The notes: a model not told the origin generated them from the letters alone. A stretch of 35,349 nucleotides of DNA from Planctomycetaceae bacterium (GCA_947441435.1 CANETX010000007.1:1-35349); one strand, 5' to 3'. Positions 1,998 to 27,119 are shown, counted from the first letter of the stretch. Numbers and translations: made by a program.

Positions 1998-2003
1998 AGG
2001 GTA
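1998..2003 (-). promoter_or_regulatory. TACCCT candidate -10 element, 6 nt from the helicase ATG
   Basis: Reverse strand TACCCT-ccgtca-ATG; part of a recurrent motif in the window. Confidence 0.5.
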
Positions 2004-2089
2004 CCGCCGATGCCAGGATCACCTCGCCAGTCCCTCGGATCGGTCTCTCTCGCCCTAGACACACCCTTGGTCAAAGCCACGTCACTCGG

Positions 2090-3493
2090 TCACGCAACCG
2101 TCTCCCGCACCCACCGGTGCCAGTCACTCGAGAACACATGGTTGGGGTCGAGGGAATCCTTGCGCGCGAGGAACGTGGGGAGTTGCGGGTACGCGCGCAA
2201 GAGATGATCACGGGTCGCCCACCGGTGATACGTCAAGAAGAAGGATCCGCCACGATCGAGCGCGAGATCGATGAGCGCGCGAAAACTCTCGCTCGCGTGA
2301 GCGCGTCCCTCTGGCGTGTGCGCAACATGCAGGTTGAAGATCACGCACGCTTGGTCATCCTTCGCCCAAGGCAAGAACGTCTCTGAGTCCCGGCGGATCA
2401 AGCGAATCGTCCCGTAGATCACTTCGGCGCCCCGCTCGGTGAGGACTCGCGCGGCATCATGCAGGAAGTCGACGAGACGATCGTGCGGGACATACAACTC
2501 CGAGATCATCTCGCTGCACCGACAGGGCGATGCGAGCTTCGCATCGATGCCTTCGTGGTACCCGTCGAGGTAGATGCCGAGTTGATGGGTGTCCGACCAG
2601 TAGAGGTGGCCATCCGTGGCGATGTAGTGCTGCGCGTAGAGCCCGAATGCACGCGCCTTGTCGGTGTGGGCGAGCAGCAGCAACTCTTCCCAGTCGTCGG
2701 CCGAGAGTTCGCGCGACGGTGCGGCGGGCGGCTTGGCATCGAGTGCGGGCTCGTAGCAGGAGAAGACTCCCTTGGTCAGAAACCCGCGGGATGCCGGATC
2801 GATGTCAAACTGAAAGTCGCCGTAGATGAAACCCGCATCAATACGCCGACGTGCGGCGTTGACGGCATCGTCGATGTCGATGAGCCGCACGACACGCCGG
2901 ACCGGCACGCGTGGGCAGAGTCGCAGAGTCACAGTGACGATCACGCCGAAGAGCCCGTACCCGCCGATCGCAAGCGCGAAGACGTCGGCGTGGTCGGTTC
3001 GGCTGCAGGTGACAAGATCTCCGCGTGCGTTCACGAGCGTGAAGCACTCGACATCATGGACGATCGGTGGCATGGTCAGCCCCCGCCCATGCGCGTTGGC
3101 GGAAAGTGCGCCGCCGAGAGTGAGACGGTCTGCGCCCGTCTGCTTCTGCGCGATTCCCCACTGCGGTTCGCGCAGCGGATCGCGTTGGGTTTGCAGCGCG
3201 AGATATCCAGCGATCAACTCGGGCCACTCAATGCCCGCCTCCGCAGTGACGAGTCCGCGGTCGCTGTCGAAGGCGAGGATGCGATCGAGTCCCCGCATGT
3301 CAAGGAGCGTTTCGCCCTCGAGAAACTGCTGCCCTCCCATGGCGTGGCGCGATCCACAGATCGCAAGCGAACGCCCCTCCGCGCCACACCGCTGCACAAT
3401 CTCGCACACCTCCGTGAGAGTCGAAGGGCGGATGACTTCGCGAACGGTCGTGGTGCAGAGCCCCGAGTGGATGTCATTGACGATCAGCGCCAT
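2090..3493 (-). CDS. FAD-binding oxidoreductase (FAD_binding_4 / aldonolactone oxidase-like)
   Basis: N-terminal ICGSRHAMGGQQF FAD motif, RLTLGGALSANAHGRG, and a C-terminal domain resembling D-arabinono-1,4-lactone oxidase-like enzymes; ATG start at 3493. Confidence 0.85.
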   Translation of the reverse strand: MALIVNDIHSGLCTTTVREVIRPSTLTEVCEIVQRCGAEGRSLAICGSRHAMGGQQFLEGETLLDMRGLDRILAFDSDRGLVTAEAGIEWPELIAGYLALQTQRDPLREPQWGIAQKQTGADRLTLGGALSANAHGRGLTMPPIVHDVECFTLVNARGDLVTCSRTDHADVFALAIGGYGLFGVIVTVTLRLCPRVPVRRVVRLIDIDDAVNAARRRIDAGFIYGDFQFDIDPASRGFLTKGVFSCYEPALDAKPPAAPSRELSADDWEELLLLAHTDKARAFGLYAQHYIATDGHLYWSDTHQLGIYLDGYHEGIDAKLASPCRCSEMISELYVPHDRLVDFLHDAARVLTERGAEVIYGTIRLIRRDSETFLPWAKDDQACVIFNLHVAHTPEGRAHASESFRALIDLALDRGGSFFLTYHRWATRDHLLRAYPQLPTFLARKDSLDPNHVFSSDWHRWVRETVA

Positions 3494-3529
3494 GGTGAGC
3501 CCGTCGGTGAAACCGTGGACGGCACCAGG

Positions 3530-4195
3530 CTATTGCATCGCAATCTGACGCTGAAAGTTGGCGGCGAGCGTGTGGATCACGGCCTGGTAGTCGTCATAAC
3601 TGACTTGCCCTTGCTTCGCGCGCAACACCTTGATCTCACCTGCGGCGGCGAACAGCGCTTCGGTCATTCGAATCGTGCTTGGCTGAAAATTGATGCGCAA
3701 GCGCGGCCACAACCGCTGCAGAGTGTCGCTCTGGGCCCAATTGAGAAAGTTCCCAAGCCAGATGTTCACGCCGGTCTTGTCGTGCCGGTAAATCGTCTTG
3801 TAGTCCTCAAAGATCTGGAACACCGAGATGGCAAACGCAACCTGATGCATGTCCTTTGAAGACTCAATTGAGAGATCTGGATACATCTCCGCCGGCAGCG
3901 AACCCAAGTTGTCGTAGTCATGAGCAAGCCGAAAGTTTGGCGTGATCCACAAGTCATTGATGATCTTGATGGTGGACAGTTCCAACGCCTTCTCGGTCGC
4001 CAACTCTTGGCTGCGCGCCTGGTGATAGAGCGTCAGTGCCACGAACAGCCCGGCTCCGCCCGTCAGCAACATCATCAGCCTGTAGATCGTGGATCGTTCA
4101 ATGGGTTGATCCGGGGCCGGGTCCTGCACGAGCAAGTACGCAAACAGCACGCTGAGGGCGATCATTGTGCAAAGCAGGTACTTTGAAAACGTCAC
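3530..4195 (-). CDS. Hypothetical membrane protein with two N-terminal TM helices
   Basis: Two hydrophobic segments (YLLCTMIALSVLFAYLLV; LMMLLTGGAGLFVALTLY); GTG start preceded by AGGAGG. Confidence 0.7.
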   Translation of the reverse strand: MTFSKYLLCTMIALSVLFAYLLVQDPAPDQPIERSTIYRLMMLLTGGAGLFVALTLYHQARSQELATEKALELSTIKIINDLWITPNFRLAHDYDNLGSLPAEMYPDLSIESSKDMHQVAFAISVFQIFEDYKTIYRHDKTGVNIWLGNFLNWAQSDTLQRLWPRLRINFQPSTIRMTEALFAAAGEIKVLRAKQGQVSYDDYQAVIHTLAANFQRQIAMQ

Positions 4196-4244
4196 GTATG
4201 TCCTCCTGGCCGAGTGAACCGAGGGCCCAATGTGGACGGCGATC

Positions 4245-4262
4245 CTAGGGCCTTCTCCCTAG
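4245..4262. terminator. Hairpin CTAGGG-ccttct-CCCTAG between the SIMPL gene and the downstream membrane protein gene
   Basis: Perfect 6-bp inverted repeat with 6-nt loop in the only substantial gap between the two genes; no clear U tract, so function is uncertain. Confidence 0.3.
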
Positions 4263-4292
4263 CCGAGTCGCTCTCAGTGTCCATCCAATCGG

Positions 4293-5066
4293 CTACGGCT
4301 CGATCGCGTAGGTGAGGCTCACGACTGCCTTCACAGTCTTGTGGATCGTCGAGGTGTCGCTGATTCCCCAATCGCTGACGTCCGTCGAACCTGCGGCGAC
4401 GATCTGAAAGACCCCCTGCGACGCACTCATGAGTCCTCCGACACCGGCGCGCGATCCCTTGGCGAGCAGGGTTGCGCGGTCGTAGCCGTTCTGCGTGGCC
4501 TTCCCGAGCAATTCCATCTTGATCTCCTCCAGGCCAGAGACGAGGAACGACGGGGAGCCGGATGAGACCTCCACCCCCTCCTTCACGAGGTCTGTGACGA
4601 GGCTCGACAACGCGAGCAGTGCCTGCACGCGCGACGAACGCACCTTGATCGACTGGTGCAGTCGATACCCCTCGATCGCGTTGGTGTCCTTGCCCTTGCT
4701 GTCCTTCGTGAAGTACTCGGTGGTGGTGACATCAAGCTTCGTGATTTCCGTGTCGGTGAAACCCTGCTTCAGGATCAGCGCGTTCAGTTTCGTGATGCCG
4801 ACCTCGAGGATTGCATACGCCTCCGCCGGCGTCTTGCCTCGTGCGATCACCGAGCCGTTCCAGCGCCCGGTGTCGGAGACCACCGCGGCCTCCGCGAGTC
4901 CCTTCACCTGGATGGTGGCCGGTTCGCGCTTGAAGTTGGCGATCGCACGGCCCAGCGCCTGTGATCCGACGGTGACTCCAAGCGCGAGCATTGCGCCGAA
5001 ACAAAACATCCCGAAGCCAAAGTTCTTGACGAGCGGCGGAAGACGATGAATGAGTGTGTTTGACAT
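4293..5066 (-). CDS. SIMPL (DUF541) domain protein
   Basis: ATIQVKGLAEAAVVSDTGRWNGSVIARG...AYAILE...VTTTEYFTKDSKGKDTNAIEGYRLHQSIKVRSSRV; N-terminal TM; AAGGA Shine-Dalgarno before ATG. Confidence 0.8.
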   Translation of the reverse strand: MSNTLIHRLPPLVKNFGFGMFCFGAMLALGVTVGSQALGRAIANFKREPATIQVKGLAEAAVVSDTGRWNGSVIARGKTPAEAYAILEVGITKLNALILKQGFTDTEITKLDVTTTEYFTKDSKGKDTNAIEGYRLHQSIKVRSSRVQALLALSSLVTDLVKEGVEVSSGSPSFLVSGLEEIKMELLGKATQNGYDRATLLAKGSRAGVGGLMSASQGVFQIVAAGSTDVSDWGISDTSTIHKTVKAVVSLTYAIEP

Positions 5067-5226
5067 CGAAGCGTCCTTGCAGAGGTGCGAGCGTCACGCG
5101 ACATCCATGCCGCGTGGGGGGATCTAGCCTAAACCCCTCCGGGCCGATGTCCAGTGGCAACCTGCAAATCTCCAGTCCGGGCCTGAAACAAGGGCAAACT
5201 GAGGCGACGCCGATCGCCCAACCCTC

Positions 5227-7230
5227 TCACACGGTGAATCTCGAAACTTCCTGCTTGAGTTCCCCAACCGAGGCCCGCAGTTCCACCGTCGCCTTGTTCG
5301 AGTCCTCCAATGCACCGGCAGTGCGCTCGGCTCCGTCGGCGAGCCGGGACATTGCATCCCGAATCTGCTGTGCCCCCTGCGACTGGGCGCGCATCCCTTC
5401 GGCGACATCCCCGAACCGCGCCGAAATCGCCTGGACCGACGTGATGATCTCACCGAGCGTTCCCGAGACCTCGCCGATCTCGCGCACGCCCCCACTGACA
5501 TGATCTGAGAAGGCGCTCATCTCCTTGACCCCGGCGGTCACGCTCTTCTGCATCTCGTTCACCATCCGCTCGATGTCGAGCGAGGCCACCGCGGTCTGAT
5601 CCGCCAACCGGGTGATCTCGCGAGCCACCACCAGGAATCCGAGTCCCTGGTCGCCGGCCTTCTCGGCCTCGATCGTGGCGTTGATCGAGAGAAGATTGGT
5701 CCGGTCGGCAACCTTGACCATCGTCGTGATGACGCCGGTGATGTCCGTGGCTCGCTCGCGGATGGTGGCCAACTTCCCGCTGATCGATGCGGTGCTTGCC
5801 TCCAAGGTGCGCATCGTCGCGTCCATCCCTGCGAGATCCTTGCGCCCCTCCAACGCCTTCTCTCCGGTGCTCGCCGCGAGGTCGTTGACCTCGGCCATCG
5901 TCCGTGACAGCTCGTTGCTTGTCGCCGCGATCTCCGTCACTGCTGAGACGGCATCGCTTGTGGACCCTCCAAGATCCGCCACGACACGCTGCTGCTCGGC
6001 GCTCGTTGCTTGGATCGAGGTGGCGACGCGATCCAATGTCACCGACGAGCCTTGGATGCGGGAGATCAGTCCCCGCAAGTCGTTGGTCATCGTCTGGATC
6101 GCGGTGAGCAACGCACCGGTCTCGTCGTTGGAGTGCTCCCCGACATCGACGCGCAGATCCCCGCCCGCCACCTGCCGGGCGACCGCCACCGCCGTCCGGA
6201 GCGGGCGCGAGATGCTCCGCGCAACTACGAGCGCCGTCAGTGCCACGGCAAGCACGGTGGCAAGTGACAACCAGAGGATCGTCTTGCGCTGAAGGCGGAG
6301 TTCAGCAAATGCCTCGCTGGAATCTTGCTTGACGTTGATCCCCCACCGATAGCTGGGGAGGTAGCACCACGCTGCGACAACTTCATTCCCGCGGTAATCC
6401 TGAACAATGCCGTCACCGCGCTGCCCGCTTGCGGCGAGCTGGGTGCCACTGCCAGCCCCAACGCCGAGCGGAATCTTCATGCGGAAGGCGGCATCCGGCG
6501 AGTGCCGGAGCGGCGCCGTGATCAGCACGCTGTCGCCAGAGCGCTCACCGACCACGATCTCGCCAGTCTCGCCCAGGCCGCTCATGTTGGACAGCACATT
6601 CCAGACTCGTTCTGGTCCGAGCCCGCCAGCAAAGACTCCGATGACGCGTCCATCCTCTATGATCGGGCTCGTCACGAAGGCGATCGGACCCGGCGACCCT
6701 GCGTAGAGTTGAAAGGCCGTGAAGTCGGTCTGGAGCAACGCCTTGGAACGAAGGCAGCCGCTGGCAAGTTCGGTGGTCGACAGCGGGGCCGCAAGGATGG
6801 AGGCCGACACCTCGAACGCGGGGGTCAGTGAGTAGTGAATTGTCCCAACTCTGTCGAGCAGCAGGAGTTCGTGGTAGCCCAACTTGCCGGCGAGGTCTGC
6901 AAGACTCGCCTTCGCTTGCGCCACCCGCGCCGCGTCCCCCGAGAGGATGCCTCCAAGGGCACCGTGGACATTGGGGCTCGTTGCCAGCGTCGTCGCGTCC
7001 GCGATTCGCTCCACCGCATACGTCTCAAGTTCGCTTGATCGTTCAGCAGCGAGTCGGATGAGGTTGAATCGCACAGCCTCCTCCCGAGCGTGGGTCGCAC
7101 TGCGTGCCGTGATCGTCGTCAGCACCGCACACGGGACAAGCGAGATCGCGAGAAACCAGAGCAGGAGGCGACCCGCGATCGAGCGGTGAACGCCGAACCC
7201 TGCCTGGGCGGTGGTCGTTCCATCGCTCAC
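5227..7230 (-). CDS. Methyl-accepting chemotaxis protein, dCache-like sensor + HAMP + WspA-like signalling tip
   Basis: TM1 LLLWFLAISLVPCAVLTTI, periplasmic sensor, TM2, HAMP (RPLRTAVAVARQVAGGDL), tip VADRTNLLSINATIEAEKAGDQGLGFLVVAREITRLADQTAVASLDIERMV. The GTG start at 7230 overlaps the upstream stop (GTGA), so the ORF-track start at 7347 is probably too long. Confidence 0.9.
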   Translation of the reverse strand: MSDGTTTAQAGFGVHRSIAGRLLLWFLAISLVPCAVLTTITARSATHAREEAVRFNLIRLAAERSSELETYAVERIADATTLATSPNVHGALGGILSGDAARVAQAKASLADLAGKLGYHELLLLDRVGTIHYSLTPAFEVSASILAAPLSTTELASGCLRSKALLQTDFTAFQLYAGSPGPIAFVTSPIIEDGRVIGVFAGGLGPERVWNVLSNMSGLGETGEIVVGERSGDSVLITAPLRHSPDAAFRMKIPLGVGAGSGTQLAASGQRGDGIVQDYRGNEVVAAWCYLPSYRWGINVKQDSSEAFAELRLQRKTILWLSLATVLAVALTALVVARSISRPLRTAVAVARQVAGGDLRVDVGEHSNDETGALLTAIQTMTNDLRGLISRIQGSSVTLDRVATSIQATSAEQQRVVADLGGSTSDAVSAVTEIAATSNELSRTMAEVNDLAASTGEKALEGRKDLAGMDATMRTLEASTASISGKLATIRERATDITGVITTMVKVADRTNLLSINATIEAEKAGDQGLGFLVVAREITRLADQTAVASLDIERMVNEMQKSVTAGVKEMSAFSDHVSGGVREIGEVSGTLGEIITSVQAISARFGDVAEGMRAQSQGAQQIRDAMSRLADGAERTAGALEDSNKATVELRASVGELKQEVSRFTV

Positions 7231-8516
7231 GGTGCCGCCCACTTCCCGCCCCACCCTCGGGCGAGGGCTTCCACGAACTCTTGCCACTGCGTGCGCGTCC
7301 TCGATATCGGGAATGGGACCGGGCGCACAGCGGTCTTGCTCGTCCACACAATGTCGAACTGGCCATCCTGGCGGACTCGACCGATCGACACCGGCCGCCA
7401 GGTGTGCTGCGTGGCAGGATCGACCGCGATGATCCCCTCGGGAGCGTTGAGGCTCTGATGACGGATGGCGTACCGAACCTGTTGCACATCGGTCGTCCCC
7501 GACTCGCGCACCGCCTGCGCCCAGAGCATCACGCTGTTGTACGCCGTGGTGATCACGTCCGAGATCGGCCGGTCCTGGCCATATCTCGCCTTGAACGCGC
7601 GGACGAACTCCGCATTCTCAGGTCGATCGATGCTCTGGAAGTAGTTCCATGCTGCGTAGGTCCCGACGATGTCGTCCCGTGACACCGATCGCAGTTCATC
7701 CTCGGCGAGTGCGAATGTCAGGACCGGCGTCTGGTCGAGACGGATCCCGGCCTTGCGAAGCTCCTTCGCAAACGCGAGCGCGGAGTCCCCGACGACCGTG
7801 CTGAGCACGACGTCCGGCTTCGCCGCCGCGATTTCGCGTACGGCAGCGGCGAAGTCGGTGCTGCCGAAGCGGACATACACCTCGCCAACGCGCTCGGCTC
7901 CCAGCCCAACAAGCTGATCGCCGATGATCGCGTTGACGCAGTGCGGCCAGATGTAGTCGGAACCGATGAGGAAAAATCGATTGGCGCCAAGTTTCTCATG
8001 GCACCACTGCACCGCCGGGGTGATCTGCTGGTTTGGCGCCGCCCCTGTGTAGATGACATTGTCAGACTGCTCGAGACCCTCGTACGCCATCGGATACACC
8101 AGCAGGTGATCGAACTTTTCGAAGACGGGCAGCACGCTCTTGCGGCTGGCACTCGTCCAACAGCCGAACACCACGCACGCCTCTTCCTTGACGATCAAGT
8201 GTTGTGCCTGGGCGGCAAAACGAGGCCAATCGGATGCGCCGTCGGCGATCACCCACGCGACCTGTCGACCGAGGAGTCCCCCGGAAGCGTTGATCTGCTC
8301 CAGCGCGAGCACCTCTGCGTCGATCATCGAACTCTCGCTGACCGCCATCGGCCCGGTCTGTGAGTGGAGGATCCCGACGACGATCGGGGCACGGTTCACG
8401 AGCAACTTGTCGAACGCAAGCCAGCCGAGCAGGCCGATTGCAGCCGCCACCACGACCACCGCGAGTCCGTATCTCCGTGGGGGTGAAGCCATCCTCTCGA
8501 AGGATATCACTCGCAT
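7227..8516 (-). CDS. UrtA/AmiC-like (urea/amide) type I periplasmic binding protein, N-terminally membrane anchored
   Basis: ILHSQTGPMAVSESSMIDAEVLALEQINASGG, DGASDWPRFAAQAQHLI, VFGCWTSASRKSVLPVFEKFDHLLVYPMAYEG, GAAPNQQITPAVQW, typical UrtA-family segments. N-terminal TM (LAVVVVAAAIGLLGWLAF). ATG at 8516 preceded by GAGGTG. Confidence 0.88.
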   Translation of the reverse strand: MRVISFERMASPPRRYGLAVVVVAAAIGLLGWLAFDKLLVNRAPIVVGILHSQTGPMAVSESSMIDAEVLALEQINASGGLLGRQVAWVIADGASDWPRFAAQAQHLIVKEEACVVFGCWTSASRKSVLPVFEKFDHLLVYPMAYEGLEQSDNVIYTGAAPNQQITPAVQWCHEKLGANRFFLIGSDYIWPHCVNAIIGDQLVGLGAERVGEVYVRFGSTDFAAAVREIAAAKPDVVLSTVVGDSALAFAKELRKAGIRLDQTPVLTFALAEDELRSVSRDDIVGTYAAWNYFQSIDRPENAEFVRAFKARYGQDRPISDVITTAYNSVMLWAQAVRESGTTDVQQVRYAIRHQSLNAPEGIIAVDPATQHTWRPVSIGRVRQDGQFDIVWTSKTAVRPVPFPISRTRTQWQEFVEALARGWGGKWAAP

Positions 8517-8644
8517 CGATGCACCTCGATGCACCTCGCCGTGACGCTGCGACGGTCGCAGGGCGAGTTACCATCACTGAAGCGCGCTCGATGAACCGCA
8601 TACGCAACAGATTCCGATGAGCAGTTGGAGGGCTCCTGCTCGGG

Positions 8645-9385: not shown

Positions 9386-9397
9386 GGATCACGACCA

Positions 9398-9958: not shown

Positions 9959-10015
9959 CGCCAACAGTTGCTACCGACCGCAGCCAAGCGCGCACGCCTG
10001 CACTCCGGTGCCCAT

Positions 10016-10615
10016 CTAGAACTGCCGGCGGAATCGCGCGTGAAGCGCGATCAGCGCGGCGTAGTCGCCACGATCTGCTGTCCTGAGGGCCGCGAGATAC
10101 TCCTCTCGAATCGTGCTGGCACTCCCGATAGTCGTGTCTGGCCAGTGGGTGAGGTCGGGGCTATGCAGCCGCAGCCAGATGTTTGCAAGCATCCGGGACC
10201 ATCGACCATTGCCGTTGTCGAATGGATGGATCGAGACCGCGCGGTGATGCATGCGGACCGCCTGCTCGAGGAGGGGCATCCGCGACTCGCTCCACGCGGG
10301 AAGGTCATGCAGCAGCCCATGGAGTTCGCCTTCAATGCGATGCGGTAACGCGCCAATGTTCGTCTCCGCGCGCCTCAATTGCCCAGCCCATGTCCACACG
10401 TCGCCGAACATCTCGCGGTGAAGTCGTAGGACCCAGGGGTAGTCGAACGGTGCGGTGCGCAGAGATGGCGCCGCCGCAAAGTACTTGATGATTGCTCTGC
10501 GGATGTTCTCGGCCTCCGCGGCGTCGAGCTGCGCCCGAGTCCTGACATCTTTCAGACGGAGCCCCGAGAGATCGTCAAGCGGAGTCTGCCCGGGAGTGAT
10601 CCGATCGGGGAGCAT
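10016..10615 (-). CDS. Fic/DOC family protein, mobile mystery protein B-like
   Basis: Fic motif HPFDNGNGRWSR; N-terminal TPLDDLSGLRLKDVRTRAQLDAAEAENI. ATG at 10615 overlaps the upstream stop as TGATG, preferred over the GTG at 10627. Confidence 0.9.
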   Translation of the reverse strand: MLPDRITPGQTPLDDLSGLRLKDVRTRAQLDAAEAENIRRAIIKYFAAAPSLRTAPFDYPWVLRLHREMFGDVWTWAGQLRRAETNIGALPHRIEGELHGLLHDLPAWSESRMPLLEQAVRMHHRAVSIHPFDNGNGRWSRMLANIWLRLHSPDLTHWPDTTIGSASTIREEYLAALRTADRGDYAALIALHARFRRQF

Positions 10616-11001
10616 CACTCTGCCCACAGTCGGCGTGACGGGCCAGCGAGCAATTCGTGATACGAGCGCGCGACAAGGGTCTCGTAGGTCTCGCGGTCGA
10701 CTGCTTGGCTCTCGAGGGCGCTGGTGCCTTGAACGATGCTCGCGATCCTCTCAGCCTTCGCGCGCGCCTGACCGCGCCGAAACTCCTCGACCGGGGAGTC
10801 GGCGAATCCGAGCGGCGCGCCCAGCGCATTGGCGACCGCCGCGACATTCCCTACTGACGCTTGGTTGAACTTGCCGCCGAAGATTCGCTTCACGGTCGGG
10901 AGTGGGACCCCGCTTCTGGATGCAACTGCGGCGAGGGTCATCCCAAGCTGCCGTCGGCGGGAGGACAGCTGGTGGACGGAGTCGTGTTGGAGTGGAGGCA
11001 T
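10615..11001 (-). CDS. XRE-family helix-turn-helix regulator, candidate antitoxin of the Fic protein
   Basis: HTH LSSRRRQLGMTLAAVASRSGVPLPTVKRIFGG; start MPPLQHDS at 11001 (the 11112 ORF-track start is likely spurious); coupled to fic. Confidence 0.8.
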   Translation of the reverse strand: MPPLQHDSVHQLSSRRRQLGMTLAAVASRSGVPLPTVKRIFGGKFNQASVGNVAAVANALGAPLGFADSPVEEFRRGQARAKAERIASIVQGTSALESQAVDRETYETLVARSYHELLAGPSRRLWAE

Positions 11002-11012
11002 GTGTGAATATA

Positions 11013-11028
11013 GGATGATATATGATCC
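11013..11028. promoter_or_regulatory. Near-perfect 16-bp palindrome GGATGATATATGATCC, candidate XRE operator
   Basis: 14 of 16 bases are palindromic; lies immediately upstream of TATATT (11007-11012, reverse strand) and 11 nt from the ATG at 11001. Confidence 0.6.
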
Positions 11029-11130
11029 GTTTTCCACTGTATCGCAGCTAGTTTGTGAGCCAACACTCTTGACGCACGCCACAATAGTCCGGTAACCGCC
11101 TGACCAAGACATCCAGCGAGCTCGGGCTGC

Positions 11131-11739: not shown

Positions 11740-11753
11740 CGGGAGCGGGAAGT

Positions 11754-13262: not shown

Positions 13263-13268
13263 CCATTC

Positions 13269-13274
13269 ACTGTA
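13269..13274 (-). promoter_or_regulatory. TACAGT candidate -10 element, 6 nt from the BBE oxidase ATG
   Basis: Reverse strand TTGAAT-16 nt-TACAGT-gaatgg-ATG. Confidence 0.55.
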
Positions 13275-13334
13275 GAACCGACTTCGCGCGATTCAAGAAA
13301 GGGCGGGCCTTTCCGCGCTCTGGAGTTCTACCCT

Positions 13335-14126: not shown

Positions 14127-14184
14127 CGACGAATCGGCGCTCGCGCCATCGGCATCGTGAACCGCCGGACACGAAGGGCGCGGC

Positions 14185-14190
14185 TACCCT
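14185..14190 (+). promoter_or_regulatory. TACCCT candidate -10 element, 7 nt from ATG 14198
   Basis: TACCCT-tgcttcc-ATG. Confidence 0.45.
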
Positions 14191-14197
14191 TGCTTCC

Positions 14198-15478: not shown

Positions 15479-15544
15479 GAACGCCGCGCCCGGTGATCCG
15501 CAACGCCATCGAGCGTACGAACTCCTTCGGTACCGTGTTGTCGC

Positions 15545-17095
15545 GTGGGCGACGATCTCCAACCCGTGGCGTCAGTTGAGACGATCGAGTTGCCAGCGCA
15601 ACTCCGACTCGACGCCTGGCGACAGCTTGAGTTCGACCACTCGGGCACGAGGCTCGCGCTTGAGTACATGGTGGACGCCCGCGCGTTTCCGTGGCTTTCC
15701 GAGCACTCCGTGGATGTCGCGCTTCCCGCTGGGCTGGGTGCTGCCGCGATGCTCTTGTGGGTCACCCGTCGCATCATTCGCAGGCCGCGCACAGTCGGTC
15801 GCACGTATTGCCGGCGATGCGGCTACGACCTTACTCCCCCAGAGGGCGCGATCCTGTGCGCCACCTGTCACGAGTGTGGGCAGCGCACTCTGGGACGCGC
15901 GTTGCAAGGACGTCGGCTTCGCCCTTGGCACTTCGCGCTCCCAATGCTCTTCCTGGGATGTGTCATCGCGTGCGCTGGCATCTGCTACGAAGGCCTTTCG
16001 TCGATGCAGACCGCGCTCGCGCCCTCGGCTTGGCCCATCGCGTCGATCGAATCCGGCATTCGCGGATGGCCGCTGTGGCGCATCAAGTGCGCCCCGTCGT
16101 GGGAGTCCCGGTGCGCCTCTTACTCGCTCGGCACCGATGGACGGTTGCACGGCCATCCATGGATCGTTCCCATGCATCCTGCATGGCGCTTCAGTTCTGA
16201 TGGCTCGCACCTCGTCTCACTGGAGTTCTCTCAACGCGGCGGGTGGATCCACCGTGCGCTGATCCATGACTTCGCCGCGCGGACGAGCCGCACGGTCGAC
16301 TTCGGGACGGCAACCGATGGGTTCTTTCAACTCGCAGCAGTGGCGGCTCATGGGACCTCCGCGCTCGTCATTCAGACGCTCTTGGTGGGTGCAGCCGGGG
16401 AAGCAGATACCAAGCTTCTGCAACTCGATCTTGCCACCGGGGTGCTCACGGCGATCGCGTCCACCACGGTTCCCTCCTGGGATGGCGGAGGATCACCGCT
16501 GAGTTACTCGACGCCTCCGATGTCGGCATGCGTCAGCCAATCGCAGGCGATTCCCTGGGCTCTCGTCGTGCACGACCTGCGACGCTTGGGTGGCGGTGCC
16601 CGCGGCGCGCGAGGCGGCTCGCTCCTGATCGTTGGCACCGCCGAGGGCGAACGACGCATCCCCATTCCACACGTGATGGGCGTCTTGCCGACGAGCTTCA
16701 CATGCGTGATCGCCGATGATGACACGGTGGTCATCAATGGCTCACTTAGCGTCCATGTGCGTACCGCCACGTTCGCAAGCAAGGCCAAGGCGCGCTTCGA
16801 CGTGATCCCGACCGACGATCCCCACACTGATCGGTTGGTTGAGTACGAACTTCTGATGACCGCGACCCTTGACGGGGGTGACACAGGCACCGAGACCGAG
16901 CGCGGCACGATTGCGATGCTTGACTCGCGCCCCCAGGCGCCAGCAAGGAGCGGATCGCCTTACCAGTACCGTCCACTTGCCGCATTCAGTCCCCGAAGCG
17001 GGATCTGTGCACTCGAGTGTGCGGACGGTGCGGCCGACGCGCCTCGGGTCCTGAGAGTCTGGCGCTTGACGCCGCAGCTCCCGCACGGGCAGTAG
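15545..17095 (+). CDS. Membrane protein with zinc ribbon and a WD40-like C-terminal region
   Basis: TYCRRCGYDLTPPEGAILCATCHECG (CxxC...CxxCxxC) between two TM helices; GTG start; repeats resembling beta-propeller blades downstream. Confidence 0.65.
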   Translation: MGDDLQPVASVETIELPAQLRLDAWRQLEFDHSGTRLALEYMVDARAFPWLSEHSVDVALPAGLGAAAMLLWVTRRIIRRPRTVGRTYCRRCGYDLTPPEGAILCATCHECGQRTLGRALQGRRLRPWHFALPMLFLGCVIACAGICYEGLSSMQTALAPSAWPIASIESGIRGWPLWRIKCAPSWESRCASYSLGTDGRLHGHPWIVPMHPAWRFSSDGSHLVSLEFSQRGGWIHRALIHDFAARTSRTVDFGTATDGFFQLAAVAAHGTSALVIQTLLVGAAGEADTKLLQLDLATGVLTAIASTTVPSWDGGGSPLSYSTPPMSACVSQSQAIPWALVVHDLRRLGGGARGARGGSLLIVGTAEGERRIPIPHVMGVLPTSFTCVIADDDTVVINGSLSVHVRTATFASKAKARFDVIPTDDPHTDRLVEYELLMTATLDGGDTGTETERGTIAMLDSRPQAPARSGSPYQYRPLAAFSPRSGICALECADGAADAPRVLRVWRLTPQLPHGQ

Positions 17096-17108
17096 GCTTG
17101 CCCCTCCG

Positions 17109-19558: not shown

Positions 19559-19634
19559 GTCGGTTGACAGGGGCCGGCCCCCCCGCCTGGCGTCACTGCT
19601 GGATCACTCTCCGACCGCATCGAGCCCGATGTCG

Positions 19635-20699: not shown

Positions 20700-20718
20700 C
20701 GTGCCCCATCCTCCGTGG

Positions 20719-21402
20719 TCAGTCTGCCGCTCCGCGCTGGCGATCAGCGGCGATGGCGACTGAACCGAGCTTCGCGATGAGCCCGACGATGATCACGAGG
20801 CCGGTGATCGCCTCAATCATGCTCGCGGATCGCGCCCAACTCGACCGAGGGACGATGTCGCCGTAACCGACTGTGGCAATCGTCGTCACCGAGTAGTAGA
20901 GCGCGTCGTACCAGCCGAAGATGAGTGCGGCGTTGTCAGCGGCCGTTGAGTAGGCCTTCGGATCGACCGCGGAGATGTGCCGGTGCACCGACCCGAAGAG
21001 CACGGCGACCAGCAGGTACACGACGAGCCCCCCATACACGCGGTCGTCGATGACCGCCTTCGCCCGCAGCAACTCTTTGGCAAGGACAATGACGAGGTAG
21101 AGGTAGTACGCCCACACGAGATAAGAGATCTTGCTCAGCGCCATCGCGTGTGGATCGAATCGGTAGCCGAACCACCCCCACGTGGCAAGGACTAGAAAGA
21201 GCGCGGCGAGTGGAATCGCCCGCTTCCAGTGGCTGATCGCGGCCACGCCGAGTATCGGCAGCACCACGAGGATCACCGGAAAGAGGTCGCGCAGGAACTC
21301 AGATTCTCCGTCGAGGAGCGGGTGCGCTCCGATGAGCAGAATCAGCGCGACGAGGAGCGGCAGCGTCCGGTTCTTCAGCCATTTGAGTGGGTCGCGGCGC
21401 AT
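20719..21402 (-). CDS. Ion_trans_2-type potassium channel
   Basis: Multiple TM helices and selectivity filter YYSVTTIATVGYGDIVP; likely start MRRDPLKW at 21402 rather than 21678. Confidence 0.88.
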   Translation of the reverse strand: MRRDPLKWLKNRTLPLLVALILLIGAHPLLDGESEFLRDLFPVILVVLPILGVAAISHWKRAIPLAALFLVLATWGWFGYRFDPHAMALSKISYLVWAYYLYLVIVLAKELLRAKAVIDDRVYGGLVVYLLVAVLFGSVHRHISAVDPKAYSTAADNAALIFGWYDALYYSVTTIATVGYGDIVPRSSWARSASMIEAITGLVIIVGLIAKLGSVAIAADRQRGAAD

Positions 21403-21469
21403 GCAGGGCTGGTCCAGTGGATCCGCGCCTACTGTAGCGAACGGGTGCCTCACTATTATTCGCCGACTC

Positions 21470-22549
21470 ATGACCGTGCTCGCTTCGTTCTTCGCGCTCG
21501 CGTGCGCACTCACTGGCGCAGCAACTGCACAACCTTCTCCTGACCCGCGGTGCTCCGACCTCATCGTCGGTGTTCTGGTGCAGGCTCCCTTCGTCGAGAA
21601 GACTCCTTCGGGCGAGTACACAGGGTTCGCGATCGAGCTGTGGGAAGAGATCGCGCGCCGCACGCAGACCACATTCACCTACCGCGAGTACTCCACAGTC
21701 CCGCAGATTCTCGACGCCGTCTCGACTTCGGCGGTCGATCTCGCCGTGACTGACCTGACCGTCACTGGCGAGCGCCTCGAGCGCATGGAATTCTGCCAGC
21801 CGTTCTACCACTCTGGGCTCACCATCATGATCAATGAGGACCGCCGCGTGTCGTTCACGCGACTGCTCGACAGCCTGCGGTCGAGCGGAAGCTTGGAACT
21901 TGCGGGAATCGCGTGCGCGGCCATCCTCGCGCTGACCGTCGTGGTGACCGTGGCATTGAGACGACTCAACCCCGCATTCTCCAAGCACTGGCATCACGGA
22001 CTCGCAGAGTCGTTCTATCACGTCGTTTCTGTCGCGATGACCGGCAAGACCAGTTACAAGGGGACGGTTGGTCCCCTCGGCCGCATCGTCGCGGCGATCT
22101 GGATCCTGTGCGGTGTGGCGGTCGTCGCGTACATCACGTCGACCGTGACCTCCGAGATGACGGCGAACAAACTGCGCGATGCCATCTCGGGGCCAGGCGA
22201 TCTCGCCGGCAAGAACGTCGGCGTGGTCCGCGGCACCACGAGCGCCGACTACTCGAAGACGCAGGGGTGGCAGACGCTGGGATTCGATCACTTGGGGCTC
22301 GCCGTCGACGCGCTCGTCGCGCGCGAGATCCAGGCAATCGTGTTCGACGCACCCGCCCTCCAGTTCTACGACCACGCCCACCCCGAGCTGCCACTCGCGG
22401 AAGTCGGTCCGATCTTCGACCCCTCGCGGTATGCCTTCGCACTTCCGGCGGGGAGCCCCCACCGCATCCCCTTCAATGTCGCCCTGCTCCAACTGGAGGA
22501 GGCTGGGGTCGGCGCGAAGCTGCGGGCGCAGTACTTCGGGACGCAGTGA
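21470..22549 (+). CDS. Prokaryotic ionotropic glutamate receptor-like protein (SBP_bac_3 split by an M1-P-M3 pore module)
   Basis: Signal peptide; S1 DLAVTDLTVTGERLERMEFCQPFYHSGLTIMI; TM LELAGIACAAILALTVVVTVAL; pore-like SFYHVVSVAMTGKTSYKGTVGPLGR; TM IVAAIWILCGVAVVAYITSTVTSEMTA; S2 NVGVVRGTTSADY...AIVFDAPALQFY. Confidence 0.85.
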   Translation: MTVLASFFALACALTGAATAQPSPDPRCSDLIVGVLVQAPFVEKTPSGEYTGFAIELWEEIARRTQTTFTYREYSTVPQILDAVSTSAVDLAVTDLTVTGERLERMEFCQPFYHSGLTIMINEDRRVSFTRLLDSLRSSGSLELAGIACAAILALTVVVTVALRRLNPAFSKHWHHGLAESFYHVVSVAMTGKTSYKGTVGPLGRIVAAIWILCGVAVVAYITSTVTSEMTANKLRDAISGPGDLAGKNVGVVRGTTSADYSKTQGWQTLGFDHLGLAVDALVAREIQAIVFDAPALQFYDHAHPELPLAEVGPIFDPSRYAFALPAGSPHRIPFNVALLQLEEAGVGAKLRAQYFGTQ

Positions 22550-22563
22550 GTCCGCGCCGCGCG

Positions 22564-23973
22564 TCAGGCCGTCCGAACCGTCCGTGCCGTCTCGTGCCGC
22601 TCGGCGAGCGCGTCCCACTTCGAGTCGAAGGCCCACTCGTAGTTGCGCCATCTCCCGATGGATCCTGAATTGATCGGCTTCGTCACCTGTTCGTGGCTGA
22701 GCGTGAACACCGTCCGCGAGTTGCGCTCGGGAGCGAGCACGGCGTCGTGGGCGTCGAGTCCAAGCAGCGCGAGCACTTTCATCGCATGGTTCGCCGGATC
22801 CGCGACAAGCCGCTCGTAGACGATCGCCTCGTGGTCCACGCCCAAGCGCGCCAGCGCGTCCGGGAGCAGCAGCCGTTCGGCTTCAATGACGCTGCGGATC
22901 GAACCAAGTGACGACATCCATCCATAGTGCATGGGATTGAAGAACGAGAGGAACGCGCTGATGGCGTTGTCGCGAGGGTCCCGGGCGATGTGGACCATCT
23001 TCGCGCCGGGAAGGACAGCACACACTTCGGGGAGGACCCGCCACACGCACAAAGTCTTGTCGAATGTCCACCGCGCTCCGACGCGCGCGAGCCGCCTCGC
23101 GCCTGCGACATATCGATCGCGCAGTTCACGCAGCGCCTCGCGCGGCAACTGCCCGTGCGCCCCCAACGGCACGCCGAGCGACGCTACTCCCTCGGCAAGA
23201 CGCTCGACTCCGTCGTACTCACCAATCCCGCTGATCTCGGGGTGGCCATCGAGCATCTGTTCAAGAAGCGTCGTCCCCGACCTCGGTAGCCCGACGACGA
23301 GCACGACGCCATCGACGGGGTCCTGCTTGGGAGTTCCCCATCCCCCCGAACGCGCGAGCAACTCGACCTGGCGTCGAATTCCCCCGACGAGACCCTCGAG
23401 GTCGTAGGGTGGGGTCGTCTCACGGTGCAGTTCGGTGGCAAAATCGAACGCCTCGCGGTATCGACCGAGCCGATCAAGGAGCTGCACCGCCTCAAACCCC
23501 GCAACGCGCTTCAAGACAACTCCACCGCCGGGTCCTGCCCCGCGCGAGATCTTCGTCAGCGCTTCGGCCGCAGCCGCCGCATCCGCCCAACTCTCGATAC
23601 GCGCACGCATGAGCGCGCCGCGGGAATCAACGGCGAGCAGCGCAGAGCGATCCACGAGGTCGGCAAGCGCCTCGCGATGATGGGCGAAGTAGAGCGTCTC
23701 GGCGAGCGCGACGGTCGCCTCAAGGGCATACGGGGATTTCGACTGCGCCACCGGCGTCAGCGCAGCGATCGCCCGATCGGCGCGGCCCAGTCGTTGATCG
23801 ACCAGCCCCCGCAGCAGCGCGCACTGCGGATCCCGCATCGCGGACGAGCCCAGCGCATCGATCGCCTCATCTGCGTCGCCGATTTTTCCTTGGTGGAACA
23901 ACGCTTGCACATGCGCGAGCGACGCGGGCGTTCCCCGGAGCGTCTGCCCCGCAATCGGTCGACGCGCCTGCAT
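22564..23973 (-). CDS. TPR-sulfotransferase family protein
   Basis: PAPS-binding VVLVVGLPRSGTTLLEQMLDGHPEISGIGEY; N-terminal TPR-like helices; CxxRDPRDNAISAFLSFF-type region (IARDPRDNAISAF). Confidence 0.9.
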   Translation of the reverse strand: MQARRPIAGQTLRGTPASLAHVQALFHQGKIGDADEAIDALGSSAMRDPQCALLRGLVDQRLGRADRAIAALTPVAQSKSPYALEATVALAETLYFAHHREALADLVDRSALLAVDSRGALMRARIESWADAAAAAEALTKISRGAGPGGGVVLKRVAGFEAVQLLDRLGRYREAFDFATELHRETTPPYDLEGLVGGIRRQVELLARSGGWGTPKQDPVDGVVLVVGLPRSGTTLLEQMLDGHPEISGIGEYDGVERLAEGVASLGVPLGAHGQLPREALRELRDRYVAGARRLARVGARWTFDKTLCVWRVLPEVCAVLPGAKMVHIARDPRDNAISAFLSFFNPMHYGWMSSLGSIRSVIEAERLLLPDALARLGVDHEAIVYERLVADPANHAMKVLALLGLDAHDAVLAPERNSRTVFTLSHEQVTKPINSGSIGRWRNYEWAFDSKWDALAERHETARTVRTA

Positions 23974-23979
23974 GGATCG

Positions 23980-23985
23980 ATGGTA
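23980..23985 (-). promoter_or_regulatory. TACCAT candidate -10 element, 6 nt from the sulfotransferase ATG
   Basis: Reverse strand TACCAT-cgatcc-ATG. Confidence 0.5.
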
Positions 23986-24011
23986 ACGCGCACCCATCGA
24001 CGCTTGATCTC

Positions 24012-24017
24012 TACACT
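24012..24017 (+). promoter_or_regulatory. TACACT candidate -10 element, 6 nt from the cdsA ATG
   Basis: TACACT-cagcgg-ATG. Confidence 0.5.
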
Positions 24018-24023
24018 CAGCGG

Positions 24024-24905
24024 ATGCTCCGACAGCGGCTCGTGACGGGTGCCCTCCTTATCGCCGCACTCCTCGCGCTTGCGGCGGTCGACTCTCAGGT
24101 TCCAACGCTCTACGTTTACGAGATGCGGATCGGCCCCGGATGCGTGCTCGCTGGGTTCATCGCGCTCGTTGTCGCGCCGCTCATGTCCAGGGAACTCGCG
24201 TCGCTCTGCAACCCGCGGCCCACGCGGGCTCTGCAGGTCGTCCACTTCGTGGCCATCATCGCTGGAGTCGCCTGCCTCTTTCTCGCGCCCGAGATGGTCC
24301 CAACCCATCAACTCCTGCCGCTGGCGCTCTCAACGACGGTCGGCATTGCGCTCTTGGCGGCGGTCGCCCACGGCAGGAAACACTCGGCCGAAGGCACGCT
24401 TGCCGCGGTCGGCGGCGCGCTCCTCTCCTTCGCATGGGTCGGGATCCCCATGGGATTCTGGCTCCTCCTGCGCAAGGATCGCGAGGCGTACACCATGGCC
24501 GCAGCGATCCTCTGCGTCAAGAGTTCGGACATCGGCGCATACTTCACTGGAACCCTGATCGGCCGCCACAAACTGATCCCGTGGCTGAGTCCTGGAAAGT
24601 CGTGGGAGGGATTGTGGGGAGGTCTCGTGACAAGTGCCGCAGTCGGAGCGCTGCTTGCGGTGGGATCGCAATCCGCGTGGGCAGCGGACCGCTTCGTGGA
24701 ACCCGTTTCTGCAGGCTGGGGCGCTTTCTCGGGTGCCGTACTCGGCCTCGCGGGAGTCCTCGGCGACCTCTTCGAGAGCCTTCTGAAGCGAGGCGCCGGG
24801 GTGAAGGACTCTGGCAACGTTCTCCCGGGAATGGGCGGGGCATTCGACGTTCTCGATTCGCTGCTTTTGGCTGGCCCGCTCGCGTGGTGGCTTTTGGCGT
24901 CTTGA
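24024..24905 (+). CDS. cdsA: Phosphatidate cytidylyltransferase
   Basis: Multi-TM; SPGKSWEGLWGG, GDLFESLLKRGAGVKDSGNVLPGMGGAFDVLDSLL (CTP_transf_1 signature). Confidence 0.93.
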   Translation: MLRQRLVTGALLIAALLALAAVDSQVPTLYVYEMRIGPGCVLAGFIALVVAPLMSRELASLCNPRPTRALQVVHFVAIIAGVACLFLAPEMVPTHQLLPLALSTTVGIALLAAVAHGRKHSAEGTLAAVGGALLSFAWVGIPMGFWLLLRKDREAYTMAAAILCVKSSDIGAYFTGTLIGRHKLIPWLSPGKSWEGLWGGLVTSAAVGALLAVGSQSAWAADRFVEPVSAGWGAFSGAVLGLAGVLGDLFESLLKRGAGVKDSGNVLPGMGGAFDVLDSLLLAGPLAWWLLAS

Positions 24906-24954
24906 ACGCGAAAGAAGTGATTCCGGGCCGCGCCTGTGCTACAGTTGGGGACCG

Positions 24955-25698
24955 ATGACACTCCTTGGCGACCTCGTCTCCCTCCACCAAGTCGACTGCC
25001 AAGTTCGTGCGCTCCGGGGAAGGTTGGACACTGCGGAGCGGCACTTCAAGGGCCAAGAGCGCCTCCATCAGGAACTCGCGGGACGGCTCGCGGAAGTCAA
25101 GAGCCAGATCCGCCAGCATCAGGCCACGGCGGCCAACCACGAGGCCGAGGGTGGCAGCATCAAGACCAAGATTGAAACATACCGGTCGCAGCTCAATCAG
25201 TCCACGAATCCCAAGCAGTACGCGGCGATCCTCAACGAACTGAAAGTGCTTCAGGCGCAGCGCGACGAGATCGACACGCTTGAACTCGCGCAACTCCAGA
25301 AGGCGGACGATCTCTTGGTCAAGGCCACGGAGCTTGAGACGAAGGTCTCCGAACGCGTGACGCTCTGCGATTCCGCGAAGAAGGAAATCGGCGTCTGCCG
25401 TGGCGAAGTTGGGACCCGTCTCGGCGAACTCGACCGCGAGCGCACCGACGCGTCGGCCCGCATTCCCAAGCGCGAACTCGACATCTTCGACCGTGTCGCG
25501 GACCTCTACGAGGGTGAGGCGATGTCCGAACTCGTCGCCGTCGATGTGCGCCGCCGCGAGTATGTCTGCGGAGTCTGCAACATGGAACTCCCGCCGGACA
25601 AGTACGCGACGCTCGCGTCCAATCCGAATGTCGTCGTGACCTGCACGAGTTGCCACCGCATCCTGTTCATGCCGCAGGTCGGCAGCGCGATCGCGTGA
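24955..25698 (+). CDS. Coiled-coil C4-type zinc ribbon protein
   Basis: Long coiled coil then VCGVCNMELPPDKYATLASNPNVVVTCTSCHRILF (zf-RING_7/CT398-like). Confidence 0.88.
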   Translation: MTLLGDLVSLHQVDCQVRALRGRLDTAERHFKGQERLHQELAGRLAEVKSQIRQHQATAANHEAEGGSIKTKIETYRSQLNQSTNPKQYAAILNELKVLQAQRDEIDTLELAQLQKADDLLVKATELETKVSERVTLCDSAKKEIGVCRGEVGTRLGELDRERTDASARIPKRELDIFDRVADLYEGEAMSELVAVDVRRREYVCGVCNMELPPDKYATLASNPNVVVTCTSCHRILFMPQVGSAIA

Positions 25699-25722
25699 CG
25701 CTCCCCCGCTCTCGCGGGATCC

Positions 25723-26157
25723 TCAGCCGTATCCAAGCCGCTCAAGATCCTCTTCGGTGAGTCCGAAGTGATGGCCGATCTCATGGAGCAGCGTGATCCG
25801 GATCTCTTCCTCGACGCGCGCCTCGCCGCCGCATGCAGACCCGTCCTCGTCGACTGACGCTTCCCAGCCCCCCGCTGCATCGAGGACTCCCCGGCGAAAG
25901 AGTTGGATCTGTTCAGGCAGTTCACCAGAGTGCGCGACCGATCGCTCCATCAGCGATGTCCCCGAGTGAAGACCGCAGAGGTCGTCGACGTCGGGGTCGA
26001 GCCCGAGCGACTCAAGGAGTTCGGCGCTCGCCGCATCGTCGACGATGAGGGGAGACTCTTCGAGGAGATCGTGGATGGACTTCGGCTGCGCGGCGAGGAC
26101 TCGCTCAAGAATGGCGTCGAAACGGGCGCGACCCGCCGCCGTCCACTGCGCGCTCAT
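25723..26157 (-). CDS. Minimal metallopeptidase (zincin_1 / DUF1025-like)
   Basis: VEEEIRITLLHEIGHHFGLTEEDLERLGYG; start overlaps the pyrD stop as ATGA. Confidence 0.88.
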   Translation of the reverse strand: MSAQWTAAGRARFDAILERVLAAQPKSIHDLLEESPLIVDDAASAELLESLGLDPDVDDLCGLHSGTSLMERSVAHSGELPEQIQLFRRGVLDAAGGWEASVDEDGSACGGEARVEEEIRITLLHEIGHHFGLTEEDLERLGYG

Positions 26158-27086
26158 AGCCGCACTTGACCGACGAGTTCCGTGATGCTCGTGCACCCTT
26201 GCGTGAGCACCCATGACTCAAGTCCCTTCGCAACCCGCTTGGGAGAGCGCGGGTCCGCCATGGTGGCCGTGCCCATGCCGATCGCCGTTGCGCCCGCGAG
26301 GATGAGTTCCGCCGCGTCCTCCCAGTCCATCACGCCGCCGAGTCCGACGATCGGGACACCGGCCTCGCGCGCGACGCCCGCGTGCACCTCGCGGACGACT
26401 CTTACAACGAGCGGATGGATCGCCGGGCCCGAGAGCCCGCCCACTCCGCGCGAGAGCCGCGGTTCTCTGGTGCGCACGTCGATCGCCATCGCCGGAAGAG
26501 TGTTGCACAGCACGAGCGCGTTCGCCCCGCCCTCGACTGCGGCCGCGGCCATCGCGCAGGGATCGGCCATGTCTGGAGGCAGCTTGACGAAGAGTCGTGC
26601 CGACGCCGCGCGCGCGCGCACGGCTCGCAGGAGGCCCAGAAGCGACGCCGGATCCGCCGAGAAACTCCGTCCCGTCTGAGTATTGGGACACGAGACATTG
26701 AGTTCGATCGCGGCGAACTCGCCGGTGGCTGCGAGCGTTTCGGCGACGACAGCGAACTCGTCGAGCGCATGGCCGGCGACGCTGACGATCACCGGGATCG
26801 GCGACTCGCGCACGCGCGGAACTTCGCGTTCCACGAACGCATCGAGCCCCATGTTGGCGAGCCCGATCGCGTTGAGCATCCCAACCTTCGTCGGCACCAC
26901 GCGCGCCGGCGCGTTTCCCTCGCGCTCAAGACGGGTGATGCTCTTCGTGGTGATCGCGCCGAGCCCCGCGACCCCGGCACCGTCGCGCAGTTCGCTCACA
27001 TAGCCGCAGGTTCCCCCGGCGGCGATCAGCGGAGTGCGCAGCGCAAGTCCTGCGAGCGTGATCGCCAGTGGATCGCGTTGGGCCAC
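26154..27086 (-). CDS. pyrD: Dihydroorotate dehydrogenase (class 1B-like)
   Basis: LRTPLIAAGGTCGY, TTKSITRLEREGNAPARVV, AIELNVSCPNT (catalytic Cys), IVGLGGVMDWEDAAELILAGATAIGMGTA. Confidence 0.93.
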   Translation of the reverse strand: MAQRDPLAITLAGLALRTPLIAAGGTCGYVSELRDGAGVAGLGAITTKSITRLEREGNAPARVVPTKVGMLNAIGLANMGLDAFVEREVPRVRESPIPVIVSVAGHALDEFAVVAETLAATGEFAAIELNVSCPNTQTGRSFSADPASLLGLLRAVRARAASARLFVKLPPDMADPCAMAAAAVEGGANALVLCNTLPAMAIDVRTREPRLSRGVGGLSGPAIHPLVVRVVREVHAGVAREAGVPIVGLGGVMDWEDAAELILAGATAIGMGTATMADPRSPKRVAKGLESWVLTQGCTSITELVGQVRL

Positions 27087-27105
27087 GCCATGGTTGTAAC
27101 AGATC

Positions 27106-27111
27106 TATGAT
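27106..27111 (+). promoter_or_regulatory. TATGAT candidate -10 element, 8 nt from the TPR-YggX ATG
   Basis: TATGAT-cagcagac-ATG. Confidence 0.45.
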
Positions 27112-27119
27112 CAGCAGAC

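What the first reader, a model, noticed from the sequence alone, without database searches (positions are those of the whole stretch)
1998..27111. Recurrent TAnnnT (often TACnnT) hexamer 5-10 nt before first-gene start codons: signature of widespread leaderless transcription
Seen in sequence: helicase TACCCT-6-ATG(1991,-); XRE TATATT-5-ATG(11001,-); BBE oxidase TACAGT-6-ATG(13262,-); dockerin protein TACCCT(13329-13334)-6-GTG(13341); TACCCT-7-ATG(14198); TACCGT(15531-15536)-8-GTG(15545); TAGGCT(17093-17098)-10-ATG(17109); TATTAT(21454-21459)-10-ATG(21470); sulfotransferase TACCAT-6-ATG(23973,-); cdsA TACACT-6-ATG(24024); zinc ribbon TACAGT(24940-24945)-9-ATG(24955); TPR-YggX TATGAT-8-ATG(27120); near-miss pyrD TACAAC-6-GTG(27086,-). 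These genes mostly lack a convincing Shine-Dalgarno, whereas others (4195 with AGGAGG, SIMPL with AAGGA, the UrtA-like gene with GAGGTG) have one, suggesting two initiation classes. Established knowledge: a -10 box abutting the start codon marks leaderless mRNAs, for example in Deinococcus and Actinobacteria. I do not know of a description for this planctomycete lineage. The rule also corrects several start sites.
Basis: partly seen in the sequence, partly recalled or inferred. Interest (0 to 1): 0.75.

Follow-up and report, generated by a model that had tools for sequence, protein, structure and literature searches.

The report
Leaderless −10 promoters in freshwater planctomycetes
In a lineage of lake-dwelling planctomycete bacteria a bare three-letter promoter signal (TA...T) sits exactly where transcription would begin on the start codon of many genes, and the same signal has been erased about ten-fold from both strands of the coding DNA, evidence that it really acts as a switch-on signal for mRNAs without a leader.

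Summary
All 13 hexamers are at the stated places. In 1.25 Mb of the same genome, with starts chosen without any upstream motif, TAnnnT upstream of 646 promoter-type genes jumps from 1 occurrence at a 5-nt gap to 88 at 6 nt (37, 23, 29, 16 at 7-10 nt; about 3 per position elsewhere). De novo motif search finds it unaided. It is conserved upstream of cdsA, the zinc-ribbon gene and TPR-YggX across related species. TAnnnT is purged from coding sequence on both strands (0.094 and 0.097 of the synonymous-shuffle expectation), the two most depleted of 256 comparable patterns, with the same position-5 preference as the promoters. A weak TTG occurs at the normal -35 spacing. Best reading: TAnnnT is the sigma-70 -10 element and transcription starts on the start codon (leaderless mRNA), for roughly 40% of divergently transcribed genes. 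The mechanism is known from Deinococcus, Actinobacteria and others; no description for Planctomycetota was found in the library searched. The strength of the purge is the unexpected part. Corrections: the gap is 6 or more, not 5-10; the split into leaderless and Shine-Dalgarno classes is only weakly supported. No TSS data exist.

The parts
1998..2003 (-). TACCCT, -10-like hexamer, gap 6 to ATG 1991 (DEAD-box RNA helicase, DbpA/DeaD type)
11007..11012 (-). TATATT, gap 5 to ATG 11001 (HTH/XRE ORF 10615-11112); atypical spacing, doubtful member
   Evidence: gap 5 almost unused genome-wide; HTH domain
13269..13274 (-). TACAGT, gap 6 to ATG 13262 (BBE/FAD oxidase)
13329..13334 (+). TACCCT, gap 6 to GTG 13341 (dockerin-domain protein); a motif-free caller had chosen ATG 13335, the rule moves it to GTG 13341
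14185..14190 (+). TACCCT, gap 7 to ATG 14198
15531..15536 (+). TACCGT, gap 8 to GTG 15545
17093..17098 (+). TAGGCT, gap 10 to ATG 17109; overlaps the TAG stop codon of the upstream gene, weak case
21454..21459 (+). TATTAT, gap 10 to ATG 21470 (transporter substrate-binding domain protein)
23980..23985 (-). TACCAT, gap 6 to ATG 23973 (sulfotransferase)
24012..24017 (+). TACACT, gap 6 to ATG 24024 (cdsA); TAnnnT at gap 6-9 in 14 of 15 orthologues as called, 15 of 15 after moving the start in L173
24940..24945 (+). TACAGT, gap 9 to ATG 24955 (zinc-ribbon protein); TAnnnT at gap 9-11 in 11 of 14 orthologues, often in a TGCTAnnnT (extended -10) form
27093..27098 (-). TACAAC within TGTTACAAC, gap 6 to GTG 27086 (pyrD); non-canonical last base, TGTTACAA[G/C] conserved in 15 of 15 loci
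27106..27111 (+). TATGAT, gap 8 to ATG 27120 (TPR-YggX); TAnnnT at gap 8 in all 12 orthologues found

Best explanation
TAnnnT is the -10 element of housekeeping sigma-70 promoters. In this Phycisphaerae lineage it is placed so that the first transcribed base, about 7 bp downstream of the hexamer, is the A or G of the start codon, giving leaderless mRNAs (gap 6) or leaders of a few bases (gaps 7-10). The -35 element is mostly dispensable, so three bases carry most of the promoter information. As a consequence, stray TAnnnT is selected against on both strands of coding and convergent intergenic DNA. Shown here: position, conservation, purge, shared base preference, weak -35. Inferred: sigma-70 binding, TSS at the start codon, and translation of 5'-AUG/GUG mRNA.
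For: Hard onset at gap 6 with motif-free starts, replicated in relatives. Unsupervised EM on divergent genes returns T-A-n-n-[CA]-T with gap 6 as mode, in about 63% of sequences. Rarer among operon-internal genes (5.4% against 16.0% at gap 6). Conserved across orthologues. Coding purge: 235 observed/2494 expected sense, 211/2180 antisense; top two of 256 three-of-six patterns, next 0.41. Position 5 is A/C-rich in promoters (52+101 against 28 G, 12 T) and the purge is strongest for A 0.022 and C 0.041 against G 0.159 and T 0.182. Remaining coding hexamers cluster in the last 100 nt before a co-directional gene (0.80/kb against 0.12/kb before an opposite-strand gene, 0.24/kb in gene bodies). Convergent intergenic regions depleted (0.44, 0.40), divergent enriched (1.6). 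TTG at spacer 16-19: 20 against 8.6 expected (p 6e-4), replicated 27 against 15.6 (p 0.006).
Against: No transcript data. SD frequency differs little between TAnnnT and other first genes. Gaps of 7-10 nt make up more than half of the cases and could carry 1-4 nt leaders. The -35 replicate is absent in more distant Phycisphaerae. A general TpA avoidance (0.42-0.76 for TAnnnA/C/G) contributes to the purge. The gene starts come from a caller written here and the MAG is 83% complete.
Confidence: 0.9

Rival explanations
1. The hexamer is an mRNA element (ribosomal protein S1 or other AU-rich ribosome-recruiting signal) in a normal 5' leader.
For: Nakagawa 2017 (PMC5397173) attributes an upstream A/T bias in one planctomycete to 'leaderless and/or RPS1'.
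Against: Purge equally strong on the antisense strand of genes; strict T-A-3-T register with a hard onset at gap 6; weaker at operon-internal genes, which also need translation; TTG at -35 spacing.
Confidence: 0.04
2. Promoters with short but real leaders: the hexamer is a -10 box, but transcription usually starts 1-5 nt before the start codon.
For: Gaps 7-10 are in sum as common as gap 6 (105 against 88).
Against: The mode and the sharp lower edge fall at gap 6, where position 7 downstream of the -10 is the start codon; a free leader length would give no edge there.
Confidence: 0.15
3. The pattern is compositional or a start-calling artefact (AT-rich upstream sequence, stop codons of upstream genes, selective listing).
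Against: Motif-free starts; other 3-of-6 patterns of like composition at the same place are found in only 7-10% of divergent genes against 48%; divergent genes have no upstream stop on that strand; orthologue conservation.
Confidence: 0.01
4. The coding purge is not promoter avoidance but restriction-site avoidance, codon-pair bias or a mutational bias against TAnnnT.
For: TpA itself is avoided (TAnnnA 0.42).
Against: All three frames and both strands are depleted; the same hexamer is enriched at promoters in the same genome, which restriction or mutation bias does not predict; specificity at positions 5 and 6 matches the promoters.
Confidence: 0.07

Closest known systems
-10-motif (TANNNT) adjacent to ORFs in Deinococcus-Thermus (PMC12340547)
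   Same: TANNNT a few nt upstream of the start codon, spacing requirement, -35 dispensable, leaderless genes, coexisting RBS class
   Different: There proven by mutation and expression assays; here sequence evidence only, in Planctomycetota, with a strong coding purge that a term search of that paper's main text did not find discussed
TA-like signals of leaderless genes in bacteria (Zheng 2011, PMC3160421)
   Same: TANNNT about 12 bp upstream of the start (first T at -12 here); high-GC form with uninformative middle
   Different: Their list of bacterial groups with leaderless genes does not include Planctomycetes
Leaderless transcriptome of mycobacteria and TANNNT depletion in Mtb coding DNA (PMC3898074, PMC10653884)
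   Same: TANNNT -10, many leaderless genes, depletion in all three frames
   Different: Here measured on both strands and, against synonymous shuffles, about ten-fold; no equal measure for Mtb was available
Selection against spurious -10 motifs (Froula and Francino 2007, PMC1939733)
   Same: Under-representation in coding and nonregulatory regions, over-representation in regulatory ones
   Different: Statistical shift in coding regions of 24 of 42 genomes there; E. coli by the present method only 0.79

Membership tests
Bacterial leaderless genes with a TA-like -10 signal | TANNNT with first T about 12 bp upstream of the start codon | tested here: met
   Peak at -12, hard edge at -11
Bacterial leaderless genes with a TA-like -10 signal | Enriched at first/single genes rather than operon-internal genes | tested here: met
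   16.0% divergent against 5.4% operon-internal at gap 6
Bacterial leaderless genes with a TA-like -10 signal | Absence of Shine-Dalgarno in these genes | tested here: inconclusive
   Loose SD 12-19% with TAnnnT against 19-25% without; low overall SD use
Bacterial leaderless genes with a TA-like -10 signal | TSS at or within a few nt of the start codon | not testable with these tools
   No RNA data for this lineage
Bacterial leaderless genes with a TA-like -10 signal | 5'-AUG/GUG mRNA is translated | not testable with these tools
   Needs reporter or proteomics
Sigma-70 -10 element | -35 TTG at 16-19 bp spacing in at least some promoters | tested here: met
   20 against 8.6 expected, replicated 27 against 15.6; weak, an excess of about 5% of promoters
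Sigma-70 -10 element | Housekeeping sigma factor present with intact -35-reading region 4.2 | tested here: met
   RpoD over the family cut-off at G000:C9; region 4.2 reads [31 protein letters not shown]
Genomes under selection against spurious promoters | -10 motif under-represented in coding and convergent DNA, over-represented in regulatory DNA | tested here: met
   0.094/0.097 coding; 0.44/0.40 convergent, 1.61/1.55 divergent

The most novel reading that the evidence does not exclude
In this lineage a bare TAnnnT, without -35 or extended -10, is enough to start transcription in vivo, so that coding DNA on both strands is under one of the strongest genome-wide counter-selections known against a three-base motif; promoter specificity is achieved by cleaning the genome rather than by elaborating the promoter.
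Probability: 0.45. Interest if true: 0.75.

Novelty: new member of a known kind. Interest (0 to 1): 0.58.

Why it matters
It extends leaderless -10/ORF architecture to an uncultured freshwater lineage of Planctomycetota, a phylum in which no description was found. It gives a rule (TAnnnT, then at least 6 nt, then the start codon) that corrects gene starts in its MAGs. The ten-fold two-strand purge makes an old idea, that selection scrubs genomes of accidental promoters, visible in raw sequence, and lets promoter specificity be read from what a genome avoids, without any RNA.

Tried and rejected
No-Rho hypothesis for the purge: Rho is present in the genome, with a shorter paralogue, so absence of Rho cannot explain it. 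Extended -10 (TGn) as a general feature: TG at -3/-2 in 15 of 235, not above neighbouring positions; only individual promoters such as zinc-ribbon and pyrD show it. Rank correlation of purge with promoter use over 61 middle triplets was not significant (rho -0.17); the relation shows position by position only. Correlation of purge with excess of gap-6 sites across 41 planctomycete genomes is strong overall (rho -0.73) but not outside the genus (rho -0.27, p 0.2), and species are not independent. The decoy TnnnAT (23% of divergent genes) was set aside because TAnnAT hexamers match it too. 16S rRNA, for its anti-SD tail, is not in the assembly. Two guessed plasmid accessions were not held; other plasmids were used as comparators.

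Full report
What was checked. The window is contig C7 of a 2.06-Mb, 192-contig, 83%-complete assembly. Thirteen hexamers were read back and all stand as listed.

Position. Among 318 divergent-class genes (upstream neighbour on the other strand) TAnnnT is found at gap 5 in 0.3%, gap 6 in 16.0%, gap 7 in 8.2%, gap 8 in 6.0%, gap 9 in 4.7%, with 0.55% per position as background; operon-internal genes show 5.4% at gap 6, internal ATG codons 0.1%. Over 646 first-type genes the counts by hexamer start are 1 at -11, 88 at -12, 37 at -13, then 23, 29, 16. An unsupervised ZOOPS-EM on the 40 nt upstream of divergent genes returns T(.88) A(.88) n n [C/A] T(.93) with gap 6 as mode. Allowing for start uncertainty, 48% of divergent, 29% of intermediate, 22% of distant and 11.5% of operon-internal genes have a TAnnnT at gap 6-9, against 7-10% in divergent genes for three decoy patterns. 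The net share is thus about 40% of divergent genes; over all genes about one fifth (my subtraction, approximate).

Why a transcription signal. (a) Coding DNA is purged of it on both strands: 235 observed against 2494 expected under within-gene synonymous shuffling, and 211 against 2180 for the reverse complement. In an unbiased scan of 256 three-of-six patterns, TAnnnT (0.092) and AnnnTA (0.098) rank first and second; the third is 0.41. A general TpA avoidance exists (TAnnnC 0.76, TAnnnG 0.70), so the part specific to the final T is about seven- to eight-fold. (b) Promoters and purge share base preference at position 5 (A and C). (c) Residual coding hexamers lie where promoters of the next gene would be (0.80/kb in the last 100 nt before a co-directional gene, 0.12/kb before an opposite-strand gene). 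(d) Convergent intergenic DNA is depleted, divergent enriched. (e) A weak TTG stands 16-19 bp upstream, in this genome and again in relatives. (f) RpoD is present with a canonical region 4.2. An mRNA-level signal predicts neither the antisense purge in (a) nor (d) nor (e).

Why leaderless. The hexamer-to-start gap has a hard lower edge at 6 nt. By established sigma-70 biochemistry (own knowledge), transcription starts mostly 7 bp downstream of the -10 element, i.e. after 6 nt; a smaller gap would put the start inside the start codon. Relatives give 0 at gap 5 and 54 at gap 6 of 358 genes. This step is inference: no RNA data exist.

Conservation. With orthologues in relatives from the same genus or close to it (proteins of these three genes 49-81% identical): cdsA has TAnnnT at gap 6-9 in 14 of 15 (15 of 15 if the start in L173 is moved to the ATG nine bases upstream); the zinc-ribbon gene at gap 9-11 in 11 of 14, often as TGCTAnnnT; TPR-YggX at gap 8 in 12 of 12; the operon-internal genes 27752-31673 show essentially none. 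The pyrD 'near miss' is kept as TGTTACAA[G/C], 6-7 nt, GTG in 15 of 15 loci including the window.

Where it occurs. With small genomes and freshwater habitat the lineage resembles the CL500-3/Nemodlikiaceae group of PMC6461901; that identification is a suggestion only. In the congeners examined the count of TANNNT-6-ATG exceeds that of TANNNT-4-ATG by about 40-85 per Mb and the purge is 0.08-0.36; other families of the order average 0.43. Pooled more distant Phycisphaerae loci show it too (32 at gap 6 against about 3 background, purge 0.28-0.30). Across the phylum it is patchy: gap-6/gap-4 ratios of 4-9 in several high-GC genomes, about 1 in many others, and hardly any purge in three AT-rich planctomycetes (0.78-0.96). 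Comparators by the same method (sense/antisense): E. coli 0.79/0.79, Sinorhizobium plasmid 0.61/0.68, Deinococcus plasmid 0.55/0.46, Streptomyces plasmid 0.44/0.25; plasmids are imperfect stand-ins for chromosomes.

Against what is known. TANNNT leaderless promoters are described for many bacteria (PMC3160421), with experiments in Deinococcus (PMC12340547) and mycobacteria (PMC3898074); TANNNT depletion in Mtb coding sequence and its consequence, intragenic transcription on recoding, are in PMC10653884; wider -10 avoidance is in PMC1939733. For Planctomycetes only one species with an ambiguous 'leaderless and/or RPS1' bias was found (PMC5397173); further searches gave nothing. The library lacks most subscription papers, so absence is not proof. 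This is therefore a new, well-supported member of a known kind, with an unusually strong purge.

Gap 5 is hardly used; the XRE case is doubtful; the 17109 case overlaps a stop codon; the SD/leaderless dichotomy is weak: SD-like words are enriched in operon-internal and distant genes (GGAGG 29 against 3), yet TAnnnT genes do not clearly lack them. The start-correction claim holds in examples (13335 to GTG 13341).

Noticed in passing
window 27087-27119: pyrD (-) and TPR-YggX (+) start codons are only 33 bp apart; both -10 hexamers (27093-27098 and 27106-27111) lie 7 bp apart, so the two promoters should exclude each other. The block TTGTAACA...CTA is conserved in 15 loci and may also be an operator.
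   Followed up: partly
window 23974-24023: The divergent pair sulfotransferase (-)/cdsA (+) has its two -10 elements within the 50 bp between start codons; the cdsA side is conserved in relatives, the sulfotransferase side was found in only four.
   Followed up: partly
window 31670-34615 (-), upstream of 34615: TAnnnT at gap 11-12 is kept in all seven orthologues found, a longer-gap class (leader of about 5 nt).
   Followed up: no
G000:C113:229-1473 and G000:C32:2965-4080: Two Rho-family proteins, one full-length and one shorter, in this genome and in most relatives.
   Followed up: no
coding DNA of the whole genome: TACGGT (83 of 166 expected) and TAGGTT (21 of 29) are the least purged TAnnnT forms (both strands together) and almost absent from promoters: they are probably poor -10 elements.
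   Followed up: partly
same-genus genomes G002, G008, G010, G012, G017: Species with GC near 50% purge TAnnnT less (0.20-0.36) than those near 65% (0.08); within the genus GC and purge correlate (rho -0.76).
   Followed up: partly
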